DNA of 34,965 nucleotides from Gemmatimonadota bacterium (GTDB lineage: Bacteria > Gemmatimonadota > Gemmatimonadetes > Palauibacterales > Palauibacteraceae): NCBI GenBank assembly GCA_029861425.1, contig JAOTZH010000015.1, positions 1 to 34,965 on the forward strand, read 5' to 3'. Position numbers and translations under genes: made by a program. How positions within the stretch are numbered: the stretch's first letter is position 1; each line of letters begins with the position of its first letter. Below, piece after piece: positions 8,986-15,584 of this stretch. The notes beneath the pieces are model-generated. The model saw nothing but the letters and a program-made list of their open reading frames with translations. It was not told where the DNA came from and did not search any database.

Positions 8986-9510
8986 TCAGGGCCCCTGCCC
9001 CCCCACATGTCGAAAGAGCCTGCCCGTCTCGCGGTCGTAGCCGATCAGGGCGATCTCCCGCGGCCGGACCATGACCGGTTCGGCCCAAGATAGCGACAGG
9101 GGCTCCGTGCCGTCGGGTTCCTCCGGGCGCGCCTCGAACCTGATTTCGATCTCGTGCTCGCCGGCAGCGACGTCGAACTCCCGGAACACGAATACCGGCC
9201 GATCCTGACGCGCGCCCCCGGCCAGAATCCGTTCATCCACGATCGTCTCGCCATCGATGACGACCGTCAGGTGATAGGGCACCGGCGCCGAGATGCACGC
9301 GTTCGGGTTCCTCATGTGTGGCGGGAGCTCGGCGAGCTCCTCCTCTGTCGGACGGCGACACCCCGACGAGCCATCCGGTTGATAGCGCCACGACAGACGC
9401 AGGAGCGCCTGGCCGGATGGCGTCGCGTCGTACGGCAATCGCGACAGCCCGGCGATCGCCGCCGTCCCGACCACGGCGAGGCCGAGACCGAGCAGGGAAG
9501 GGCGGTTCAC
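8986..9510 (-). CDS. Membrane-anchored periplasmic protein coupled to the cytochrome b fusion gene
   Basis: I do not recognise this family. The 174-residue protein has one N-terminal hydrophobic helix (about 5-22, LLGLGLAVVGTAAIAGL) and then a soluble domain with a beta-rich, Ig-like pattern. One conserved-looking patch holds C51, the PTEEELAELPPHMRNPNAC segment with H65, M66 and C72, and later the paired strands VFVFREFDVAAGEHEIEIRF. The Cys/His/Met residues could form a disulfide or a metal or heme site on the periplasmic side, which is inference. Start GTG 9510 overlaps the upstream stop as GTGA, so it is almost certainly translated with the cytochrome b fusion and may be its small subunit. 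The longer open frame reaching 9867 is a shadow of that gene. Confidence 0.7.
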   Translation of the reverse strand: MNRPSLLGLGLAVVGTAAIAGLSRLPYDATPSGQALLRLSWRYQPDGSSGCRRPTEEELAELPPHMRNPNACISAPVPYHLTVVIDGETIVDERILAGGARQDRPVFVFREFDVAAGEHEIEIRFEARPEEPDGTEPLSLSWAEPVMVRPREIALIGYDRETGRLFRHVGGQGP

Positions 9511-11096
9511 GGTCCCGTTCCGATCGTCTCGGGCCGCTCGGTCTCGGGCACCGGCTCGCACTCCTCGTCGATGATGATGTCGCGTTCGGCCACGGCGGGT
9601 GCACGCCCCTCGATCTCGGACACGAAGGCGCGAATCGAGGCGACGAGCCCCGTCGCGCCGCCTTCGGCCGCGTTCACGACGCGTACCCGTTGTCGATCGA
9701 CTCGTTTCAGCAACTCGGCCTCGCGTCCGTGATTGACTCGGGCATCGAGCCAGGTGACGCCTTCGCGATTCCAGCAGTCGCGGGGCGGACATGTCGCGAT
9801 GAGGACCCCCCCTACCCCGGCACGGACCATGAGCTCGACGGTCGAGCTGTGGAGGCTCCCGGCGCACGACACCGGATAGGTGAACAGCTGCGCGTCGCTA
9901 TCGACGGCATGGCGGGCGAGGAGCCAGTCGGCGGACTGCGAGCACGCGAGGACGATGACGGATTCGGCTCCGGGGCGTTGATCGCGAAGGAACGCCCTCG
10001 CCTCGGCGAGCTGATCCCGTCCCGTCCGCCCCGGCGGACCTACACCCATCGGCTTGCACGACCCGGCGCAGATCCCGCAACTGACGCACAGCTTCGGGTC
10101 GACGCGGGCGACGAAATCGAACCGTCCGTCCTCGCGCGGAACCATCGCGATCGCCTCGTACGGGCAGTCGATCGAGCACTGGTAACATTCCGTGCAGTGC
10201 CGCTCGTTGACGGACGACGCGGGCGGACGTCGTTCATCGGCCGGACGCGTCCAGGCGGGGACGGCCAGGAGCGTCACCGACGTCAGACCGACGATCACCC
10301 ACCCCGCCCACACCGGCAGCGCGCGGCTCACCGGAATCCAGAAGCTGTAGAACAGATCGAGCGGCATCGTGCCCGGGAGCCGGGTGGCGCTCGCCTGCTC
10401 GGTCATCCCGATCGGCCAGAAGACGGAGAACGCGACCAGCAACCCCGTCGCCGTCCACGTGAGGGCACGCGGCGGCATCAGGGCCGGACGAGCGATGCGA
10501 GATACGTGCAGCCAGAGGATCACGCCGACCCCGATCGGCAGCACGATGTGCAGGAACAGGTTCATGAAGAAGAACGCGCCCGGCAGCGTGTCCGCCGTCG
10601 CGAACGTGCGGCCGATCGGCTCCGCGAAGATCGGCAGTTGGTCGAGCAGCCGCGCGCCCTCGATCGCCAGCGCCTGTCCCTGGGTGTCCCAGATCATGAT
10701 GTAACCGGTCCAGCCACACAGGAAGAACACGCCCGTGAGCACGACTCCGCTGACCCACGCCAGCGTCCGAGGACCCCAGCTGCGCCCCTGTGCGAACATC
10801 CTCAACGCGTGAACGGCGATCGCGACAATGGCGGCGTCGGAGGCGTACCGGTGGAGGGTACGGATCCACCGCCCGCCCCAGACCTGACCCGTCATCGTGG
10901 CCACCGACTCCCACGGCGAGCCGATCCGGTAGAAGAGAAGGAGGTAGACGCCCGTGATGAGCAGGATGACGAGCATCAGGACGGCGATGGTCCCCGTCTG
11001 ATACATCGGGTTGTACTTCCACCCGTAGAGTCGGTTGCACGCTCGATCGAGCCGACGAAGCAGCCCGAGAGCGGACGTTCTCATCATGCCGATCAC
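9507..11096 (-). CDS. Fusion: cytochrome b + two [4Fe-4S] ferredoxin + MvhD-like iron-sulfur domain
   Basis: An inner-membrane redox protein of 529 residues. Residues 1-210 are a cytochrome b N-terminal domain with four helices and two His pairs, H82/H96 and H183/H197. These have the 14-residue spacing of bc1-type cytochromes and would bind two b hemes. Residues 210-282 hold two or three more helices with a degenerate PEWY position (P245-L-D-L-F-Y). Residues 300-350 carry CxxCxxCxxxC twice (C301/304/307/311 and C337/340/343/347), a dicluster ferredoxin. Residues 375-490 resemble MvhD, the delta subunit of methyl-viologen hydrogenase, with C385, C411, C436 and C441. GTG 11096 is preferred because AAGGGGGA lies 8 bases upstream; ATG 11087 is the alternative. 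It probably passes electrons between an iron-sulfur partner and quinone or a periplasmic carrier. No hydrogenase or Hdr gene is nearby. Confidence 0.85.
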   Translation of the reverse strand: MIGMMRTSALGLLRRLDRACNRLYGWKYNPMYQTGTIAVLMLVILLITGVYLLLFYRIGSPWESVATMTGQVWGGRWIRTLHRYASDAAIVAIAVHALRMFAQGRSWGPRTLAWVSGVVLTGVFFLCGWTGYIMIWDTQGQALAIEGARLLDQLPIFAEPIGRTFATADTLPGAFFFMNLFLHIVLPIGVGVILWLHVSRIARPALMPPRALTWTATGLLVAFSVFWPIGMTEQASATRLPGTMPLDLFYSFWIPVSRALPVWAGWVIVGLTSVTLLAVPAWTRPADERRPPASSVNERHCTECYQCSIDCPYEAIAMVPREDGRFDFVARVDPKLCVSCGICAGSCKPMGVGPPGRTGRDQLAEARAFLRDQRPGAESVIVLACSQSADWLLARHAVDSDAQLFTYPVSCAGSLHSSTVELMVRAGVGGVLIATCPPRDCWNREGVTWLDARVNHGREAELLKRVDRQRVRVVNAAEGGATGLVASIRAFVSEIEGRAPAVAERDIIIDEECEPVPETERPETIGTGP

Positions 11097-11121: not shown

Positions 11122-11150
11122 TATTTATCATATAGACATGAGAAACACAA
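11122..11150 (-). promoter_or_regulatory. Promoter of the cytochrome b fusion operon, in the rrf2 divergent region
   Basis: Reading leftward, TTGTGT (11150-11145) is followed after 17 bases by TAAATA (11127-11122), predicting a start near 11115 and a leader of about 20 bases to GTG 11096. It lies in an AT-rich island (11121-11155) that stands out from the GC-rich surroundings and separates this operon from the Rrf2 gene. An Rrf2 dimer bound here would cover both promoters. No perfect palindrome is present in the island. Confidence 0.5.
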
Positions 11151-11199: not shown

Positions 11200-11628
11200 A
11201 TGCTCTCACAGACTGCCGAGTACGCCTTGCGCGCCGCGGTCCGTCTTGCCGAGCTGCACCCCGAGGGTCCGATCCGGGTGGACGACATCGCCGCCGACCT
11301 CCGGGTGCCCCGGAACTACCTGTCGAAGATCCTGCACTCGCTAGTGAAGGCCGGCGTGTGCGCTTCGACTCGTGGGCCTCACGGCGGGTTCCAGCTCGTT
11401 CGTCCGCCCGATCAGATCCGGCTGGTCGAGGTAGTCGGAGAGTTCGACCCGGCCCTCGTGAGCTCCGAGCGAGCATGCCTGCTGGGTCGCGAGGCGTGCA
11501 GCGACGAAGACCCGTGTGCGGCGCACGAACGGTGGGGCGGAGTCCGTCAAAGGGTCACCTCGTTCTTCGAGGAAACGACATTGGACCTTCTGGTCAGGGG
11601 CGGCGCGGCGCTGCCGGCCGGCAACTGA
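11200..11628 (+). CDS. Rrf2-family iron-sulfur transcription regulator (IscR/NsrR type)
   Basis: A DNA-binding protein of 142 residues. The N-terminal winged helix is typical of Rrf2 proteins (MLSQTAEYALRAAVRLAEL, then the recognition region NYLSKILHSLVKAGVCAS and the wing TRGPHGGFQLVRPP). Three cysteines in CLLGREACSDEDPC (C-x6-C-x5-C) are in the place where IscR, NsrR and RsrR bind an Fe-S cluster. The spacing is close to, but not identical with, the x5/x5 or x4/x5 patterns known from those proteins. Start ATG 11200 has GGAGG 3 bases upstream, and the family begins exactly so. It is the first gene of the rightward operon and divergent from the cytochrome b operon, so it probably controls both and itself. 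NO sensing, as in NsrR, would fit the context but is inferred. Confidence 0.9.
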   Translation: MLSQTAEYALRAAVRLAELHPEGPIRVDDIAADLRVPRNYLSKILHSLVKAGVCASTRGPHGGFQLVRPPDQIRLVEVVGEFDPALVSSERACLLGREACSDEDPCAAHERWGGVRQRVTSFFEETTLDLLVRGGAALPAGN

Positions 11629-11658: not shown

Positions 11659-11817
11659 ATGGCTGACGAACACGATCCGACCGAGGTTCCGCTCGGTCAA
11701 CGGCTGTTCGATCGTCCGTTCTTGCTGTTGGCGTTCGGAATGGCCGTGATGTTGGTCTTCTTCACGCTCTGGGGCCTCTGGGAAATCCAGACGCTTCCGA
11801 CCGCGACACTTCCCTGA
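11659..11817 (+). CDS. 52-residue single-helix membrane peptide of the heme-copper operon
   Basis: A short gene with an excellent AGGAAAGGAAG ribosome-binding site upstream of ATG 11659. The product has a charged N-terminus (MADEHDPTEVPLGQRLFDRP), one hydrophobic helix (about 21-41, FLLLAFGMAVMLVFFTLWGLW) and a short tail. It lies 30 bases after the Rrf2 gene and 14 bases before the CuA subunit. In ba3-type oxidases a single-helix small subunit (subunit IIa, CbaD) occupies the same relative position and packs against subunit I. This peptide is therefore the likely small subunit of the complex encoded here. Its sequence is too short to assign by motif, so the call relies on size, topology and position. 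Confidence 0.7.
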   Translation: MADEHDPTEVPLGQRLFDRPFLLLAFGMAVMLVFFTLWGLWEIQTLPTATLP

Positions 11818-11831
11818 TCAGGAGATTCGAG

Positions 11832-12428
11832 ATGCATCACACTGGCTTCGAGTCGGCTCAGGGCGTGTGGTGGAAGCCGGCTCACAAATCGGAGAAGATC
11901 TGGGTCGCGATCGCATTCGCATGGTGCATGGTACTCTTCGCGATGATGCCGCTCTGGCATTTACGCGGCGGGCAGAACCCCTCCGGCATTCGCGCTCGCG
12001 TCGAGCCCGTGGCCTTTCAGGACCGGGTGAATGAGTTCGTCGCCGAATACGGCGTGACGGACGCAAACGGTTCCCAGGTGCTGGAGAACGGCATCCCGGT
12101 GGTCCAGCCGCCCCCAGGGAGCGACGTCTACATGATGGGCCGGATGTGGGCCTGGACTCCCGTCCTCTTCCTCGAGAAGAACGCGCAGTACACGCTTCAT
12201 CTGTCCTCGTTCGACGTGAACCACGGGTTCAACCTCTACCCGTTCAACGTCAACTTCCAGGTGGTCCCGGGCTACGATTACGGACTTCGCGTCACGCCGA
12301 CCCAGGAAGGCGAATTCCGAATCGTCTGCAACGAATTCTGCGGTATCGGGCACCACCTGATGATCGGCCGGATCTTCGTGGAGGACACCGGCCTACCCGC
12401 CCCGGGGAGTGAAGGAGGTGCACAATGA
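11832..12428 (+). CDS. Heme-copper enzyme subunit II with CuA site (NorS-like / ba3-type CoxB)
   Basis: A protein of 198 residues with one N-terminal membrane anchor (about 22-42) and a periplasmic cupredoxin domain. The binuclear CuA ligands are all present: H131 (DVNHGF) and C166-x3-C170-x3-H174-x2-M177 in CNEFCGIGHHLM. The short form with a single anchor is that of B-family (ba3) enzymes. CuA receives electrons from a soluble cytochrome c or a cupredoxin and passes them to heme b of subunit I. No cytochrome c gene lies in the cluster. AGGAG lies upstream of ATG 11832. Its stop overlaps the start of subunit I as ATGA, so the two are made together. In the proposed NO-reductase reading this subunit corresponds to NorS. 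Confidence 0.9.
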   Translation: MHHTGFESAQGVWWKPAHKSEKIWVAIAFAWCMVLFAMMPLWHLRGGQNPSGIRARVEPVAFQDRVNEFVAEYGVTDANGSQVLENGIPVVQPPPGSDVYMMGRMWAWTPVLFLEKNAQYTLHLSSFDVNHGFNLYPFNVNFQVVPGYDYGLRVTPTQEGEFRIVCNEFCGIGHHLMIGRIFVEDTGLPAPGSEGGAQ

Positions 12429-14167
12429 CGGGCGACGGCGGAGTCGTGGGCCGCTGGGCGCACCGGATCTGCCCGACCACCGGGCTCAAGGTGCATACGC
12501 AGGCAGATCGACTGATCAGGGCGCACGCGGTCGTGGCGACCGTCTCTCTGTTGATCGGCGGGATCGCGGCGATCCTCGTGCTCCTCACCCGCTGGCAAGC
12601 CGTTCACCTGCTGGACGCGGTCTGGTTCTACCGGATCCTGACCGTCCACGGGATGAACATGCTGATCTTCTTCATCATCTTCTTCGAGATGGCGATCCTG
12701 ATATTCGCCGGGCCGGTGCTGCTGAACTGCAGGGTGCCGGCGGTGAAGACGACCTGGGCCGGGTTCGGGCTCATGGTGGTCGGGATGCTCATGGTCGAGT
12801 GGATGATGTGGACCGGGCAGGCGGACGTGCTCTTCACGTCGTACGTGCCGCTGCGCGCGGAGCCGCCGTTCTATCTCGGCGTAATCCTCTTTGCGGTGGG
12901 AGCGCTGATCACGACGGCCGTCTTCATGGCCACCCTCGTGGTCGCGAAGCGCGAGAAGACCTACGAGGGCTCGGTCCCGCTCGTCACATACGGCGGGATC
13001 ACCGCTGCAATCATCGCCATCATCACGCTGGTCCACGGTGCCGCGATCTACATCCCGACGTTCCTGTGGTCGATCGGCGTGATGAACGTCGACCCCCAGA
13101 TCTATCGTCTCGTCTGGTGGGGACTGGGTCACTCGTCCCAGCAGATCAACGTCGCCGCCATGGTCGCCGTCTGGTACATGCTCGGAGGGCTGACGGTCGG
13201 AGCGGTCGTGCTCAACGAGAAGGTCAGCCGCACCGCCTTCGTGCTCTACATCGGCTTCATTTCCATGGCGTCGGCTCACCACCTGCTCGTCGATCCGGGA
13301 TTCGGTCCCGCCTGGAAGATCTGGAACACTAGCTACTTCATGTATATGGCCGTACTGGCCAGCATGGTTCACGGGTTCACCGTGCCCGCCGGCATGGAAA
13401 TGGGCATGCGGCTCAGGGGGTTCACACAGGGGCTGTTCGGGTGGCTGCGAAAGGCGCCCTGGGGTGATCCCGGGTTCAGCGCTCTGGTCTTCTCGGTGAC
13501 CGTGTTCGGGTTCGTCGGCGGTATCACCGGCGTGACATTCGGCACGGAGCAGATCAACATCATCGCCCACAACACGCTTCGGATCCCGGGGCACTTCCAC
13601 GCCACAGTCGTGTCGGGCACGGCGATGGCGTTCATGGGCGTCACGTACTACGTGATCCCGCTGATCTTCAGGAAGCGGATCGCGTTCTTCAAGCTGGCGA
13701 AGATCCAGCCCTATCTGTTCGCGGGCGGCATGCTCGTCTTCTCCATGGCGATGACGTTCGCCGGCACGTTCGGCGTCCCGCGCCGTCACTGGGACGTCAC
13801 GTTCCAGGGTGCAGCCTACACGGTGGAGTACAGCCCGGCCGTCGACCTGCTCCTCGCGATCACGGCGATCGGCGGACTGATCGCGGCGCTTGGCGGCGGG
13901 ATCTACATCCTCGTGACCGTCGTTTCGGTCTTCTTCGGCAAGCCGCTTCCGGCGGGTCGAGAGGCGGAGTTCGCCGACTCGATCCCGCAGGGTCTCCTGT
14001 CGCAGCCCTGGGCGCAGATCCCCAAGACCGAAGAAGAACCCGAGTCTCCATGGAAGATCGGTCCAGTGCCGGGAACGATGGTACTGGTGTTCATCTTCCT
14101 GGCGGCCTTCATTACCTACTACTTCGCGAACTGGAAGCTGCTGTCGTTCGCCTGGAAGGTCGGTTGA
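12425..14167 (+). CDS. ba3-like heme-copper subunit I with Tyr-to-Gln active-site change; probable NO reductase (NorY-like)
   Basis: An integral membrane protein of 580 residues with 13-14 helices, aligning by eye with Thermus ba3 subunit I along its length. Low-spin heme ligands are H75 and H392, the high-spin heme ligand is H390, and CuB ligands are H236, H285 and H286. The segments SAHHLLVDPGFGPAWK and HNTLRIPGHFHATV match the ba3 versions closely. The striking change is in helix VI, where oxidases read GHPxVY with a His-Tyr cross-link. This protein reads G-H236-S-S-Q-Q240, so the tyrosine at H+4 is glutamine (codon 13142-13144). Loss of that tyrosine is a hallmark of heme-copper NO reductases. 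With subunit II, SenC and a membrane protein downstream, it resembles norSY-senC-orf1 clusters. Reduction of NO to N2O is the favoured role; an inactive oxidase is less likely because all ligands are kept. GAAGGAGGTG precedes ATG 12425. Confidence 0.85.
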   Translation: MTGDGGVVGRWAHRICPTTGLKVHTQADRLIRAHAVVATVSLLIGGIAAILVLLTRWQAVHLLDAVWFYRILTVHGMNMLIFFIIFFEMAILIFAGPVLLNCRVPAVKTTWAGFGLMVVGMLMVEWMMWTGQADVLFTSYVPLRAEPPFYLGVILFAVGALITTAVFMATLVVAKREKTYEGSVPLVTYGGITAAIIAIITLVHGAAIYIPTFLWSIGVMNVDPQIYRLVWWGLGHSSQQINVAAMVAVWYMLGGLTVGAVVLNEKVSRTAFVLYIGFISMASAHHLLVDPGFGPAWKIWNTSYFMYMAVLASMVHGFTVPAGMEMGMRLRGFTQGLFGWLRKAPWGDPGFSALVFSVTVFGFVGGITGVTFGTEQINIIAHNTLRIPGHFHATVVSGTAMAFMGVTYYVIPLIFRKRIAFFKLAKIQPYLFAGGMLVFSMAMTFAGTFGVPRRHWDVTFQGAAYTVEYSPAVDLLLAITAIGGLIAALGGGIYILVTVVSVFFGKPLPAGREAEFADSIPQGLLSQPWAQIPKTEEEPESPWKIGPVPGTMVLVFIFLAAFITYYFANWKLLSFAWKVG

Positions 14168-14183
14168 TCCGGAGGGGTCGGGC

Positions 14184-15086
14184 GTGAAAGAACCAAACCG
14201 AGGGCCCACGGCGATCGAGCCGTGGGCCCTCGCGGCTCTGGTCTCGTGGCTGGCGATCACCATCGGCTGGTGGGCGCTGGCGCTATGGCCGCTCCCCGGC
14301 GAGGCGCCGGACTGGCTCACGCGCGCGCGGGCCGTCTGCTTCAACACCACGGGGACGGGCCTGCCGGACGCATCGGGCTGGTTGCTGTTGATCGGGCAAC
14401 CGATCGGGATGCTCGGAGTCCTGCTGGTGGGCTGGCCGAAAGCGATCGGGTCGACGCTGCGGGGACTGTCGGGGCGAGCGCCCGGTCGCCTCGCCCTCGT
14501 CACGGGGCTCACCATCGTCATGGGTGGCCTTCTGGCGGCCGGCGTGCGAGTCGCCAACGCACGGGCGGCGGCAGTGGTCCGAATCGTCCCCGACGCCGCC
14601 CACCCGGCCGCCGAGCAGCGTCACGAGCCGGTGCCGGCGGACATCGACCTGATCGACCAGGACGGAGGCCGGGTGTCGATGGCTCGCCTGCGGGGCCGAC
14701 CCGTACTCCTCACCTTCGCCTTCGGTCACTGCGAGACCGTCTGCCCCGTCGTGGTGAAGAACGCGAACGCGGTTCGAGCGGGAATGGCAGAGTCCGATCG
14801 CCCCGTGCTCGTGGTCGTGACTCTGGATCCGTGGCGTGACACGCCAGCGCGTCTCGATCACCTGGCGACCGTCTGGGAGCTCGGCGACGACGACCTCGCC
14901 GCGGGGGGAACGGTCGGTCAGGTCAACGCGATGCTCGACGCCTGGGGCGTCGCCCGGACGAGAGACGAGCGGACCGGCGACATCATCCATTCGCCTCTCG
15001 TGTACGGCATCGATCGCGAGGGGCGAATCGCCTTCGTCTCGACCGGCGAGTCGGGCTCGCTGCGAGATCGAGTCGGCCGGCTCTGA
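14184..15086 (+). CDS. senC: SenC/SCO1-type copper chaperone with N-terminal membrane domain
   Basis: A protein of 300 residues. Residues 1-125 contain about three hydrophobic helices with an unusual stretch, AVCFNTTGTGLPDASGWLLL, between the first two. Residues 150-300 form a thioredoxin-like SCO domain with the copper-binding C183-E-T-V-C187 motif and the conserved distal His H269 (IIHSPLVYGID). VTLDPWRDTP is also typical of SCO. SCO/SenC proteins deliver copper to, or reduce, the CuA site of heme-copper enzymes, which agrees with the CuA subunit two genes upstream. GTG 14184 has GGAGGGG about 7 bases upstream and lies 16 bases after subunit I. Most SCO proteins have a single anchor; the extra helices are notable. 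A strong 13-bp hairpin covers codons about 6-17. Confidence 0.88.
   Translation: MKEPNRGPTAIEPWALAALVSWLAITIGWWALALWPLPGEAPDWLTRARAVCFNTTGTGLPDASGWLLLIGQPIGMLGVLLVGWPKAIGSTLRGLSGRAPGRLALVTGLTIVMGGLLAAGVRVANARAAAVVRIVPDAAHPAAEQRHEPVPADIDLIDQDGGRVSMARLRGRPVLLTFAFGHCETVCPVVVKNANAVRAGMAESDRPVLVVVTLDPWRDTPARLDHLATVWELGDDDLAAGGTVGQVNAMLDAWGVARTRDERTGDIIHSPLVYGIDREGRIAFVSTGESGSLRDRVGRL
14199..14232 (+). promoter_or_regulatory. 13-bp perfect hairpin at the start of the senC reading frame
   Basis: The arm CGAGGGCCCACGG (14199-14211) pairs without mismatch with CCGTGGGCCCTCG (14220-14232), leaving an 8-base loop CGATCGAG. It begins 15 bases inside senC and 32 bases after the subunit I stop. With no T-run it is not a normal terminator. 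It could reduce expression of senC relative to the enzyme subunits, or protect the 3' end of the upstream message. Confidence 0.55.
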
Positions 15087-15089
15087 TCC

Positions 15090-15584
15090 GTGCGCTCACT
15101 CTACATCCTGAACGTCACGGTTCACGTGTTGGCCGCCTTCGTGTGGCTGGGTGGCATGCTCTTCCTCGCCATCGTCGCACCGATACTCCGCGACCTGGAG
15201 TCGCCTGAGCTCCGGTCCCGGCTGTTCCGCGAGATCGGGGAACGCTTCCGCTGGGTCGGGTGGACATGCATCGGGATTCTGCTCGTCACCGGAGTCCTCA
15301 ACCTCCAGTTTGCCGGTGTCCTCAACGCGGCCTCTCTTCTTGACGCGAGCTTCTGGGCGACGCCCTACGGCCGGACGCTCGGAGGCAAGCTGGGCGCCGT
15401 TCTCGCCATGCTGTTGATCAGCGCAGTGCATGACTTCTTCCTGGGTCCACGTGCCACGTCCCTCCTTCCGGGCTCCGCGGAGAGCATCGTCTTTCGAAGG
15501 CGCGCTTCCTACCTGGCGAGAGTGAACGCGCTGCTCGGGCTGCTCGTGGTGTGGGCGGCCGTCCTCATCGCGCGCGGGGGATAG
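15090..15584 (+). CDS. CopD-like four-helix membrane protein (orf1 of the cluster)
   Basis: A protein of 164 residues with four hydrophobic helices: about 5-31, 53-75, 98-116 and 143-162. The first helix reads LYILNVTVHVLAAFVWLGGMLFLAIVAP when traced through residues 4-31. It carries a His followed by VWLGG, as in the CopD/DUF4149-type copper-transport membrane proteins. A second His (VHDFF) is near residue 114. It starts at GTG 15090, 3 bases after the senC stop, and is the last gene of the operon. It may move copper or help assemble the CuA/CuB centres. In ammonia oxidisers a membrane protein gene called orf1 follows senC in norSY clusters, and this gene holds the same place; homology to it could not be tested here. 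Confidence 0.65.
   Translation: MRSLYILNVTVHVLAAFVWLGGMLFLAIVAPILRDLESPELRSRLFREIGERFRWVGWTCIGILLVTGVLNLQFAGVLNAASLLDASFWATPYGRTLGGKLGAVLAMLLISAVHDFFLGPRATSLLPGSAESIVFRRRASYLARVNALLGLLVVWAAVLIARGG

What the first reader, a model, noticed from the sequence alone, without database searches (positions are those of the whole stretch)
11659..15584. Probable norSY-senC-orf1-type nitric oxide reductase in which the oxidase tyrosine is glutamine
Seen: subunit I keeps H75, H236, H285, H286, H390 and H392, but the helix-VI motif is GHSSQQ, so the residue four after the CuB histidine is Gln240 instead of the cross-linked Tyr (Y237 in Thermus ba3). Residue 239 is also Gln where oxidases have a small hydrophobic residue. 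Subunit II has a full CuA site. Known: the tyrosine donates an electron and proton in O2 reduction, and heme-copper NO reductases lack it. From memory, norSY-senC-orf1 clusters (sNOR) in ammonia-oxidising bacteria have the same gene order. Inferred: this operon makes a CuA-containing, B-family NO reductase. The double Gln may form a distinct active site, and a non-haem iron may replace CuB.
Basis: partly seen in the sequence, partly recalled or inferred. Interest (0 to 1): 0.85.

Follow-up and report, generated by a model that had tools for sequence, protein, structure and literature searches.

The report
Tyrosine-less CuA-type nitric oxide reductase
A bacterium carries a relative of an oxygen-consuming respiratory enzyme whose key tyrosine is a glutamine, which most likely makes it an enzyme that turns toxic nitric oxide into nitrous oxide; the type is already known as eNOR, but here it travels with a membrane electron carrier that may be its partner.

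Summary
Window 12425-14167 encodes a B-family haem-copper subunit I whose helix VI reads GHSSQQ, with Gln240 where ba3 oxidases have the active-site tyrosine. Subunit II has a full CuA site. The substitution is not unique: all 80 loci kept from a named-genome scan carry QQ (one search pattern selects Gln239, not Gln240). In the tree 37 QQ proteins form one clade, 100/99, apart from 24 tyrosine-bearing ba3 proteins. The label sNOR is not supported: a published table gives sNOR an Asn and eNOR a Gln here, and B-type 'ba3-a1', which lacks the tyrosine, has been renamed eNOR. So this is an eNOR-type NO reductase in a Gemmatimonadota draft genome with no other NOR found and no NirK, NirS or NosZ over cut-off: probably NO detoxification. 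New to me is the context. A divergent cytochrome b / 2[4Fe-4S] / FlpD fusion accompanies it: of 298 genomes 66 have the NOR, 67 the fusion, 64 both, 62 as divergent neighbours. A conserved palindrome lies between them. I found no description of the pairing, but the key eNOR paper (PNAS 2024) could not be read.

The parts
12425..14167 (+). subunit I of an eNOR-type B-family NO reductase (580 aa; GHSSQQ in helix VI, Q240 at the Tyr position)
11832..12428 (+). subunit II with one N-terminal helix and a complete CuA site; overlaps the start of subunit I by four bases
11659..11817 (+). 52-aa single-helix protein, subunit IIa-like; a match lies upstream of subunit I in 73 of 84 loci
14184..15086 (+). 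SCO1/SenC copper chaperone with an N-terminal membrane part, presumably for CuA assembly; an SCO match in 74 of 84 loci
15090..15584 (+). CopD-like membrane protein; found in 7 of 84 loci, so probably not a core part
11200..11628 (+). Rrf2-family regulator with C-x6-C-x5-C (Fe-S sensor type; NsrR-like by position and cysteines only, below the NsrR cut-off); start inferred
11125..11144 (.). 20-bp dyad TTATCATATAGACATGAGAA (consensus TTATCAT-N6-ATGATAA, 1 mismatch), candidate operator between the divergent genes
9507..11087 (-). cytochrome b (two-haem type) / two [4Fe-4S] / FlpD fusion, divergent from the NOR operon; conserved partner gene (start inferred)

Best explanation
The operon makes an eNOR-type nitric oxide reductase: a B-family haem-copper enzyme with CuA in subunit II, a low-spin haem and a haem-CuB (or FeB) site in subunit I, in which Gln240 replaces the tyrosine. 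Electrons enter at CuA and pass to the haem-metal site, where 2 NO + 2 e- + 2 H+ give N2O + H2O. NO reduction breaks no O-O bond, so the tyrosine that supplies an electron and proton to O2 is not needed; Gln239, Gln240 and the clade-specific His316 (Thr in ba3) would hold water and carry protons. Expression is probably released when NO damages the Fe-S cluster of the Rrf2 regulator bound at the palindrome, which also controls the divergent cytochrome b/Fe-S/FlpD protein, a likely redox partner. In this genome, with no nitrite reductase or N2O reductase found, the job is most likely NO detoxification. Shown: sequence, residues, clade, gene association, conserved palindrome. Inferred: substrate, proton path, regulation, direction of electron flow in the partner.
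For: Gln at the Tyr position in 81 of 81, with the metal-ligand His kept (H75 80 of 80; H236, H285, H286, H390 81 of 81; H392 80 of 81). One clade apart from Tyr-ba3, 100/99. Published criterion: eNOR ingroup defined by this Gln, subunit II immediately upstream in the example shown (PMC8756737 passages). 'ba3-a1' lacking the tyrosine tends to form a sister clade of true B oxidases (PMC6431628 passages) and was renamed eNOR after NO reductase activity was reported (PMC8879329 passage); eNOR is listed as biochemically characterised (PMC11388526 passages).
Against: No activity was measured, and no sequence of a characterised eNOR (Rhodothermus) was available to place in the tree. 24 of 66 NOR genomes, this one included, have neither NirK over cut-off nor NosZ. 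The NosZ association is weak (32 of 66 against 70 of 232, p 0.008); no test is corrected for relatedness. In the 80 named loci DUF542 gave no match at 1e-5 and nosZ one weak match only. In N. europaea the related sNOR has been argued to be a high-affinity oxidase (PMC6967387 passages).
Confidence: 0.85

Rival explanations
1. sNOR (norSY-senC-orf1) as in ammonia oxidisers.
Against: sNOR has Asn at the Tyr position according to PMC8756737 Table A4; here Gln in 81 of 81. The order is shared with a Tyr-bearing ba3 operon. No Nitrosomonas sequence could be fetched for a direct test.
Confidence: 0.06
2. A tyrosine-less but still O2-reducing enzyme, with a tyrosine from another helix acting as in cbb3 oxidases.
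For: Y304 and Y307, on the helix of residues 295-330, mark the clade (Y304 in 37 of 37 and Y307 in 36 of 37 QQ rows; other residues are commonest in the ba3 rows). cbb3 oxidases take their tyrosine from another helix (recalled).
Against: They lie after the HH pair, whereas the cbb3 tyrosine lies before it (recalled). Distances could not be measured because no coordinates were available to scripts. NO-linked neighbourhoods in part of the loci.
Confidence: 0.07
3. A decayed or non-catalytic oxidase (sensor or electron sink) without NO turnover.
For: In three genomes of one related genus the subunit I frame is split near residue 515.
Against: 118 positions, five of the six ligand histidines among them and the sixth (H392) nearly so, are invariant across 42 sequences (my count); the CuA motif is intact in 79 of 79.
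Confidence: 0.02

Closest known systems
eNOR (B-type ba3-a1 lacking the tyrosine)
   Same: Gln at the Tyr position, CuA subunit II immediately upstream, SCO gene in the operon, sister position to true B oxidases.
   Different: Known sequences (Rhodothermus, Natronomonas, Ardenticatena) were not available to align; the cytochrome b/Fe-S/FlpD partner and the palindrome are not mentioned in the passages read.
sNOR (norSY-senC-orf1)
   Same: B-family, CuA, SCO gene.
   Different: Asn instead of Gln by the published table.
ba3 cytochrome c oxidase (Thermus; the host's own second B-family enzyme, L002)
   Same: Fold (Foldseek E 7e-18), metal ligands, CuA; the small third subunit is recalled.
   Different: Q240 for Y, Q239 for V, N242 for W, V or I at 247 for Y, H316 for T, plus E88.
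bNOR (CuANOR of Bacillus)
   Same: CuA-containing B-family NOR.
   Different: CuANOR is listed with Asn at the position, and bNOR is said to be found only in Bacillota so far.
MvhD/FlpD of heterodisulfide reductase-hydrogenase, and cytochrome b of bc1/b6f
   Same: The partner matches cytochrome b of bc1/b6f and, over about 137 columns, the Hdr-hydrogenase chain 5odc_D.
   Different: Here they are one fused membrane protein with two [4Fe-4S] motifs, next to a NO reductase.

Membership tests
eNOR | Gln at the position of the cross-linked Tyr in subunit I | tested here: met
   Q240; 81 of 81 family members; criterion from PMC8756737
eNOR | cupredoxin/CuA subunit II immediately upstream | tested here: met
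   11832-12428, overlapping by 4 bases
eNOR | own clade, sister to tyrosine-bearing B-family oxidases | tested here: met
   37 QQ rows one clade 100/99 against 24 Y rows, matching the description in PMC6431628; the outgroup is a single A-family row
eNOR | groups with characterised Rhodothermus / archaeal eNOR | not testable with these tools
eNOR | one proton channel | tested here: inconclusive
   Y251 and S313 in 81 of 81, T319 in 76 of 81, but the ba3 Tyr at 247 is V/I and the ba3 Thr at 316 is His; that these columns belong to the channel is recalled
eNOR | NO reductase activity | not testable with these tools
   no experiment
sNOR | Asn at the Tyr position | tested here: not met
   Gln in 81 of 81; criterion from a table, not from sequences
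cNOR/qNOR | Glu at the Tyr position, no CuA (recalled) | tested here: not met
   Gln, and CuA subunit present
B-family (ba3) O2 reductase | helix VI HxxxY | tested here: not met
   HSSQQ; Y in 24 of 24 ba3 rows
bNOR (CuANOR) | Asn at the Tyr position | tested here: not met
   Gln; criterion

The most novel reading that the evidence does not exclude
The cytochrome b/2[4Fe-4S]/FlpD fusion is a dedicated redox partner of this NO reductase: a quinone-reactive membrane protein that links a cytoplasmic low-potential donor to NO reduction, under one NO-sensing switch. That would be a NO-reducing module wired differently from cNOR, qNOR or eNOR as I know them.
Probability: 0.35. Interest if true: 0.7.

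Novelty: new member of a known kind. Interest (0 to 1): 0.42.

Why it matters
B-family NO reductases without the tyrosine are easily annotated as oxidases: the 12 plasmid records in which one place covers at least 80% of the query are all labelled cbb3-type or b(o/a)3-type cytochrome c oxidase. Recognising them changes which bacteria are counted as N2O producers, Gemmatimonadota among them. The tightly linked cytochrome b/Fe-S/FlpD protein gives a concrete, testable guess at how electrons reach such an enzyme or how it is controlled, and the invariant QQ/His316 set gives targets for asking what separates NO from O2 chemistry in one fold.

Tried and rejected
Rejected: the sNOR label (Asn expected). 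Rejected as a core part: the CopD gene, 7 of 84 loci. Rejected: clustering all neighbouring ORFs by single linkage, which merged shadow frames; I used named reference proteins with tblastn instead. Led nowhere: PADLOC on the partner, Rfam on the window, a first regular-expression search for Rrf2 starts with 3 hits only (replaced by tblastn). The G204 homologue (45% identity, GHGTQQ, no cytochrome b partner in the 12-kb stretch fetched) shows that QQ and the partner are separable, as do Thermus and Thermomicrobium.

The palindrome consensus was read by eye from the same 24 upstream regions on which I then counted matches (14 of 24 with up to 3 mismatches, 19 of 24 with up to 4; in shuffled regions about 0.15% and 1.3%), so that is not a held-out test. 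In the 80 named loci (1.32 Mb) there were 13 hits with up to 2 mismatches against 0 in one mononucleotide shuffle, 12 of the 13 in loci of the reading set. In 33 further loci, some of them the same contigs as read loci, 15 had a hit with up to 3 mismatches; sites in L144, L021, L031 (1 mismatch each), L006 and L018 (2) differ from every read sequence. In L052, where the partner lies 8.4 kb away, one hit lies about 70 bp from the partner's match; a second at +8.9 kb is unexplained. Only one strand was scanned; the motif is a dyad.

Parts given to calls and rows dropped: one search matches under 65% identity were not counted as orthologues (G204 at 45%; the rest 29-35% except a 53% piece of G106, which is counted by its other piece), and 16 of the low ones were fetched for the tree. 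The tree took 32 of the 80 named loci, alignment A2 41 of the 80, alignment A3 30 of 64 partner sequences. The Caballeronia locus L122 was fetched but not used (no clean frame). Five duplicate loci were left out.
Full report
Observation. The ORF 12425-14167 (+) encodes 580 residues with all six haem-copper histidines and the helix-VI motif GHSSQQ. It is COX1 by Pfam (197 bits), aligns with Thermus ba3 so that Q240 stands on the tyrosine, and its AlphaFold model (pLDDT 82.7, pTM 0.86) finds ba3 oxidases first in the PDB (E 7e-18). Upstream lie a 52-aa single-helix protein and a CuA subunit II that overlaps subunit I by four bases; downstream are SCO and CopD-like genes.

The genome. The window belongs to a 3.85-Mb, 291-contig draft, 90% complete. 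The phylum is Gemmatimonadota: genomes drawn from its phylum hold contigs with the same lengths as contigs named Gemmatimonadota in the named scan. It has three COX1-family matches: an A-family oxidase (GHPEVY), a canonical ba3 (GHPLVY) and this one, so no other NOR was found in the draft. NosZ matches reach only CuA-like stretches below cut-off, NirK matches stay below cut-off (best E 1.6e-25), NirS gives no match. Thirteen other genomes of the same genus lack a match at 1e-30, so the gene is patchy in this genus and was probably acquired (inference).

Family. All 80 read QQ (67 of them GHSSQQ). One of the two search patterns ends at Gln239; Gln240 was not selected, and nine of the 80 have variants outside that pattern. 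Hosts include Gemmatimonadota, Pseudomonadota, Bacteroidota, Myxococcota, Nitrospirota, Verrucomicrobiota and others. Plasmids of Defluviimonas, Thermomicrobium and Thermus carry homologues at 51, 49 and 45%; the three records read, one of each, also have QQ. In the tree 37 QQ rows form one clade (100/99) and 24 Tyr rows the other (95/92), with the host's own A-family oxidase as the only outgroup row. Besides QQ, the clade differs from ba3 by E88, N242, V/I247, N301, Y304 and H316.

Which known kind. PMC8756737 (passages) defines eNOR by Gln at the tyrosine position and tabulates Asn for sNOR and CuANOR, Asp for gNOR, Glu for cNOR/qNOR. PMC6431628 (passages) describes a B-type 'ba3-a1' with SCO in its operon that lacks the tyrosine and tends to form a sister clade of true B oxidases; PMC8879329 (passage) says this subtype was reported to reduce NO and renamed eNOR. 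PMC11388526 (passages) lists eNOR among the biochemically characterised NORs and sNOR among the proposed ones. The window's enzyme therefore works like, and by the tested features is, an eNOR; placement beside a characterised sequence could not be tested. The primary paper (Murali et al., PNAS 2024) was not held.

Evidence that NO is the substrate. In 298 genomes of the phylum, 99 match the protein at 1e-30 and 66 have an orthologue (at least 65% identity, fragments included). NirK over its cut-off occurs in 18 of these 66 and in 23 of the other 232 (odds ratio 3.4, p 0.0009); NosZ (E up to 1e-100) in 32 of 66 against 70 of 232 (odds ratio 2.2, p 0.008); neither test allows for relatedness. 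In four of the 18 genomes NirK lies within about 6 kb of the NOR. DUF542 lies nearby in 3 of 10 fetched neighbourhoods and is annotated near the Thermus gene, but in the 80 named loci it gave no match at 1e-5. Hemerythrin occurs in 16 of 80 loci; nosZ gave one weak match. The neighbouring Rrf2 regulator has C-x6-C-x5-C, with a three-cysteine pattern of this general kind in 22 of 22 homologues; it does not reach the NsrR cut-off. Against: 24 of 66 NOR genomes have neither NirK over cut-off nor NosZ, which fits detoxification of outside NO better than respiration.

The partner. Divergent from the NOR operon, 9507-11087 (-) encodes a cytochrome b / two [4Fe-4S] / FlpD fusion. In 64 sequences the four haem histidines H79, H93, H180, H194 and eight cluster cysteines are invariant, and in a 30-row alignment four FlpD cysteines too. 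The model (pLDDT 88.9) matches cytochrome b of bc1/b6f and chains of heterodisulfide reductase complexes. Of 298 genomes, 67 have it and 66 the NOR; 64 have both, 62 as divergent neighbours within 10 kb on one contig, the other two on different contigs of drafts. Of the five genomes with only one of the pair, four have it at or near a contig end and one (G109) is a true exception. Among 84 loci (80 named, three plasmids, the window) 68 have it: 27 upstream and divergent, 41 downstream on the same strand. Of the 16 without, L035, L036, L061, L072 and L095 have over 3 kb on both sides, and L066 and L109 over 9 kb downstream, and lack it there; the other nine have a short flank on at least one side. 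Two different gene orders, divergent in Gemmatimonadota (22 of 24) and downstream in Pseudomonadota (31 of 37), argue for selection to keep the genes together. The paper searches (listings) gave no description of this pairing; PMC8756737 lists a cytochrome b6, a DMSOR-beta-like and an FlpD domain under one accession in a table that I saw only as a passage.

Shared control. Between the divergent genes lies a 20-bp dyad, TTATCAT-N6-ATGATAA; the window copy at 11125-11144 has one mismatch and is the only match with up to three mismatches on the scanned strand of the window. It also occurs between the same genes in L144, where no Rrf2 match was found (1 mismatch), and in L052, where the partner lies 8.4 kb away, next to the partner. 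The consensus was read from the data, so the counts are descriptive.

Mechanism. Shown: residues, clade, gene association, palindrome. Inferred: electrons reach CuA, then the low-spin haem, then the haem-metal site; Gln240, Gln239 and His316 handle water and protons in place of the tyrosine; Y251, S313 and mostly T319 keep parts of a K-type proton path (their role in ba3 is recalled). The partner could deliver electrons to, or take them from, the quinone pool; its direction is unknown, and with CuA on the outer face it is unlikely to donate directly.

Verdict. The conserved cytochrome b/Fe-S/FlpD partner is the part worth following.

Noticed in passing
window 9507-11087 (-) and 67 further loci of 84: Cytochrome b/2[4Fe-4S]/FlpD fusion that mostly accompanies this NOR; now treated as part of the finding.
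   Followed up: yes
L141, L142, L165 (genomes G120, G125, G176 of one related genus): The subunit I reading frame is split near residue 515, with the last helix in another frame, at the same place in three genomes: probably an inherited gene split.
   Followed up: partly
L036 (Thermus thermophilus plasmid): The homologue reads GHFK instead of GHFH, so a haem-ligand histidine is Lys; one of 81 other family members also has Lys there.
   Followed up: no
window - strand, match ending near 9456: A small protein (no Pfam match for the Defluviimonas copy) follows the cytochrome b/FlpD gene; a weak match in 56 of 84 loci, 29% identity in the window.
   Followed up: no
L035:7823-9625: Thermomicrobium has a fused CtaA-CyoE-like haem synthesis gene next to the NOR; CyoE-like matches occur in 31 of 37 Pseudomonadota loci.
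   Followed up: no
L140 (genome G204): A 45% identical subunit I with GHGTQQ beside a CyoE-like gene and without the cytochrome b partner in the fetched stretch: a second QQ lineage in the phylum.
   Followed up: partly
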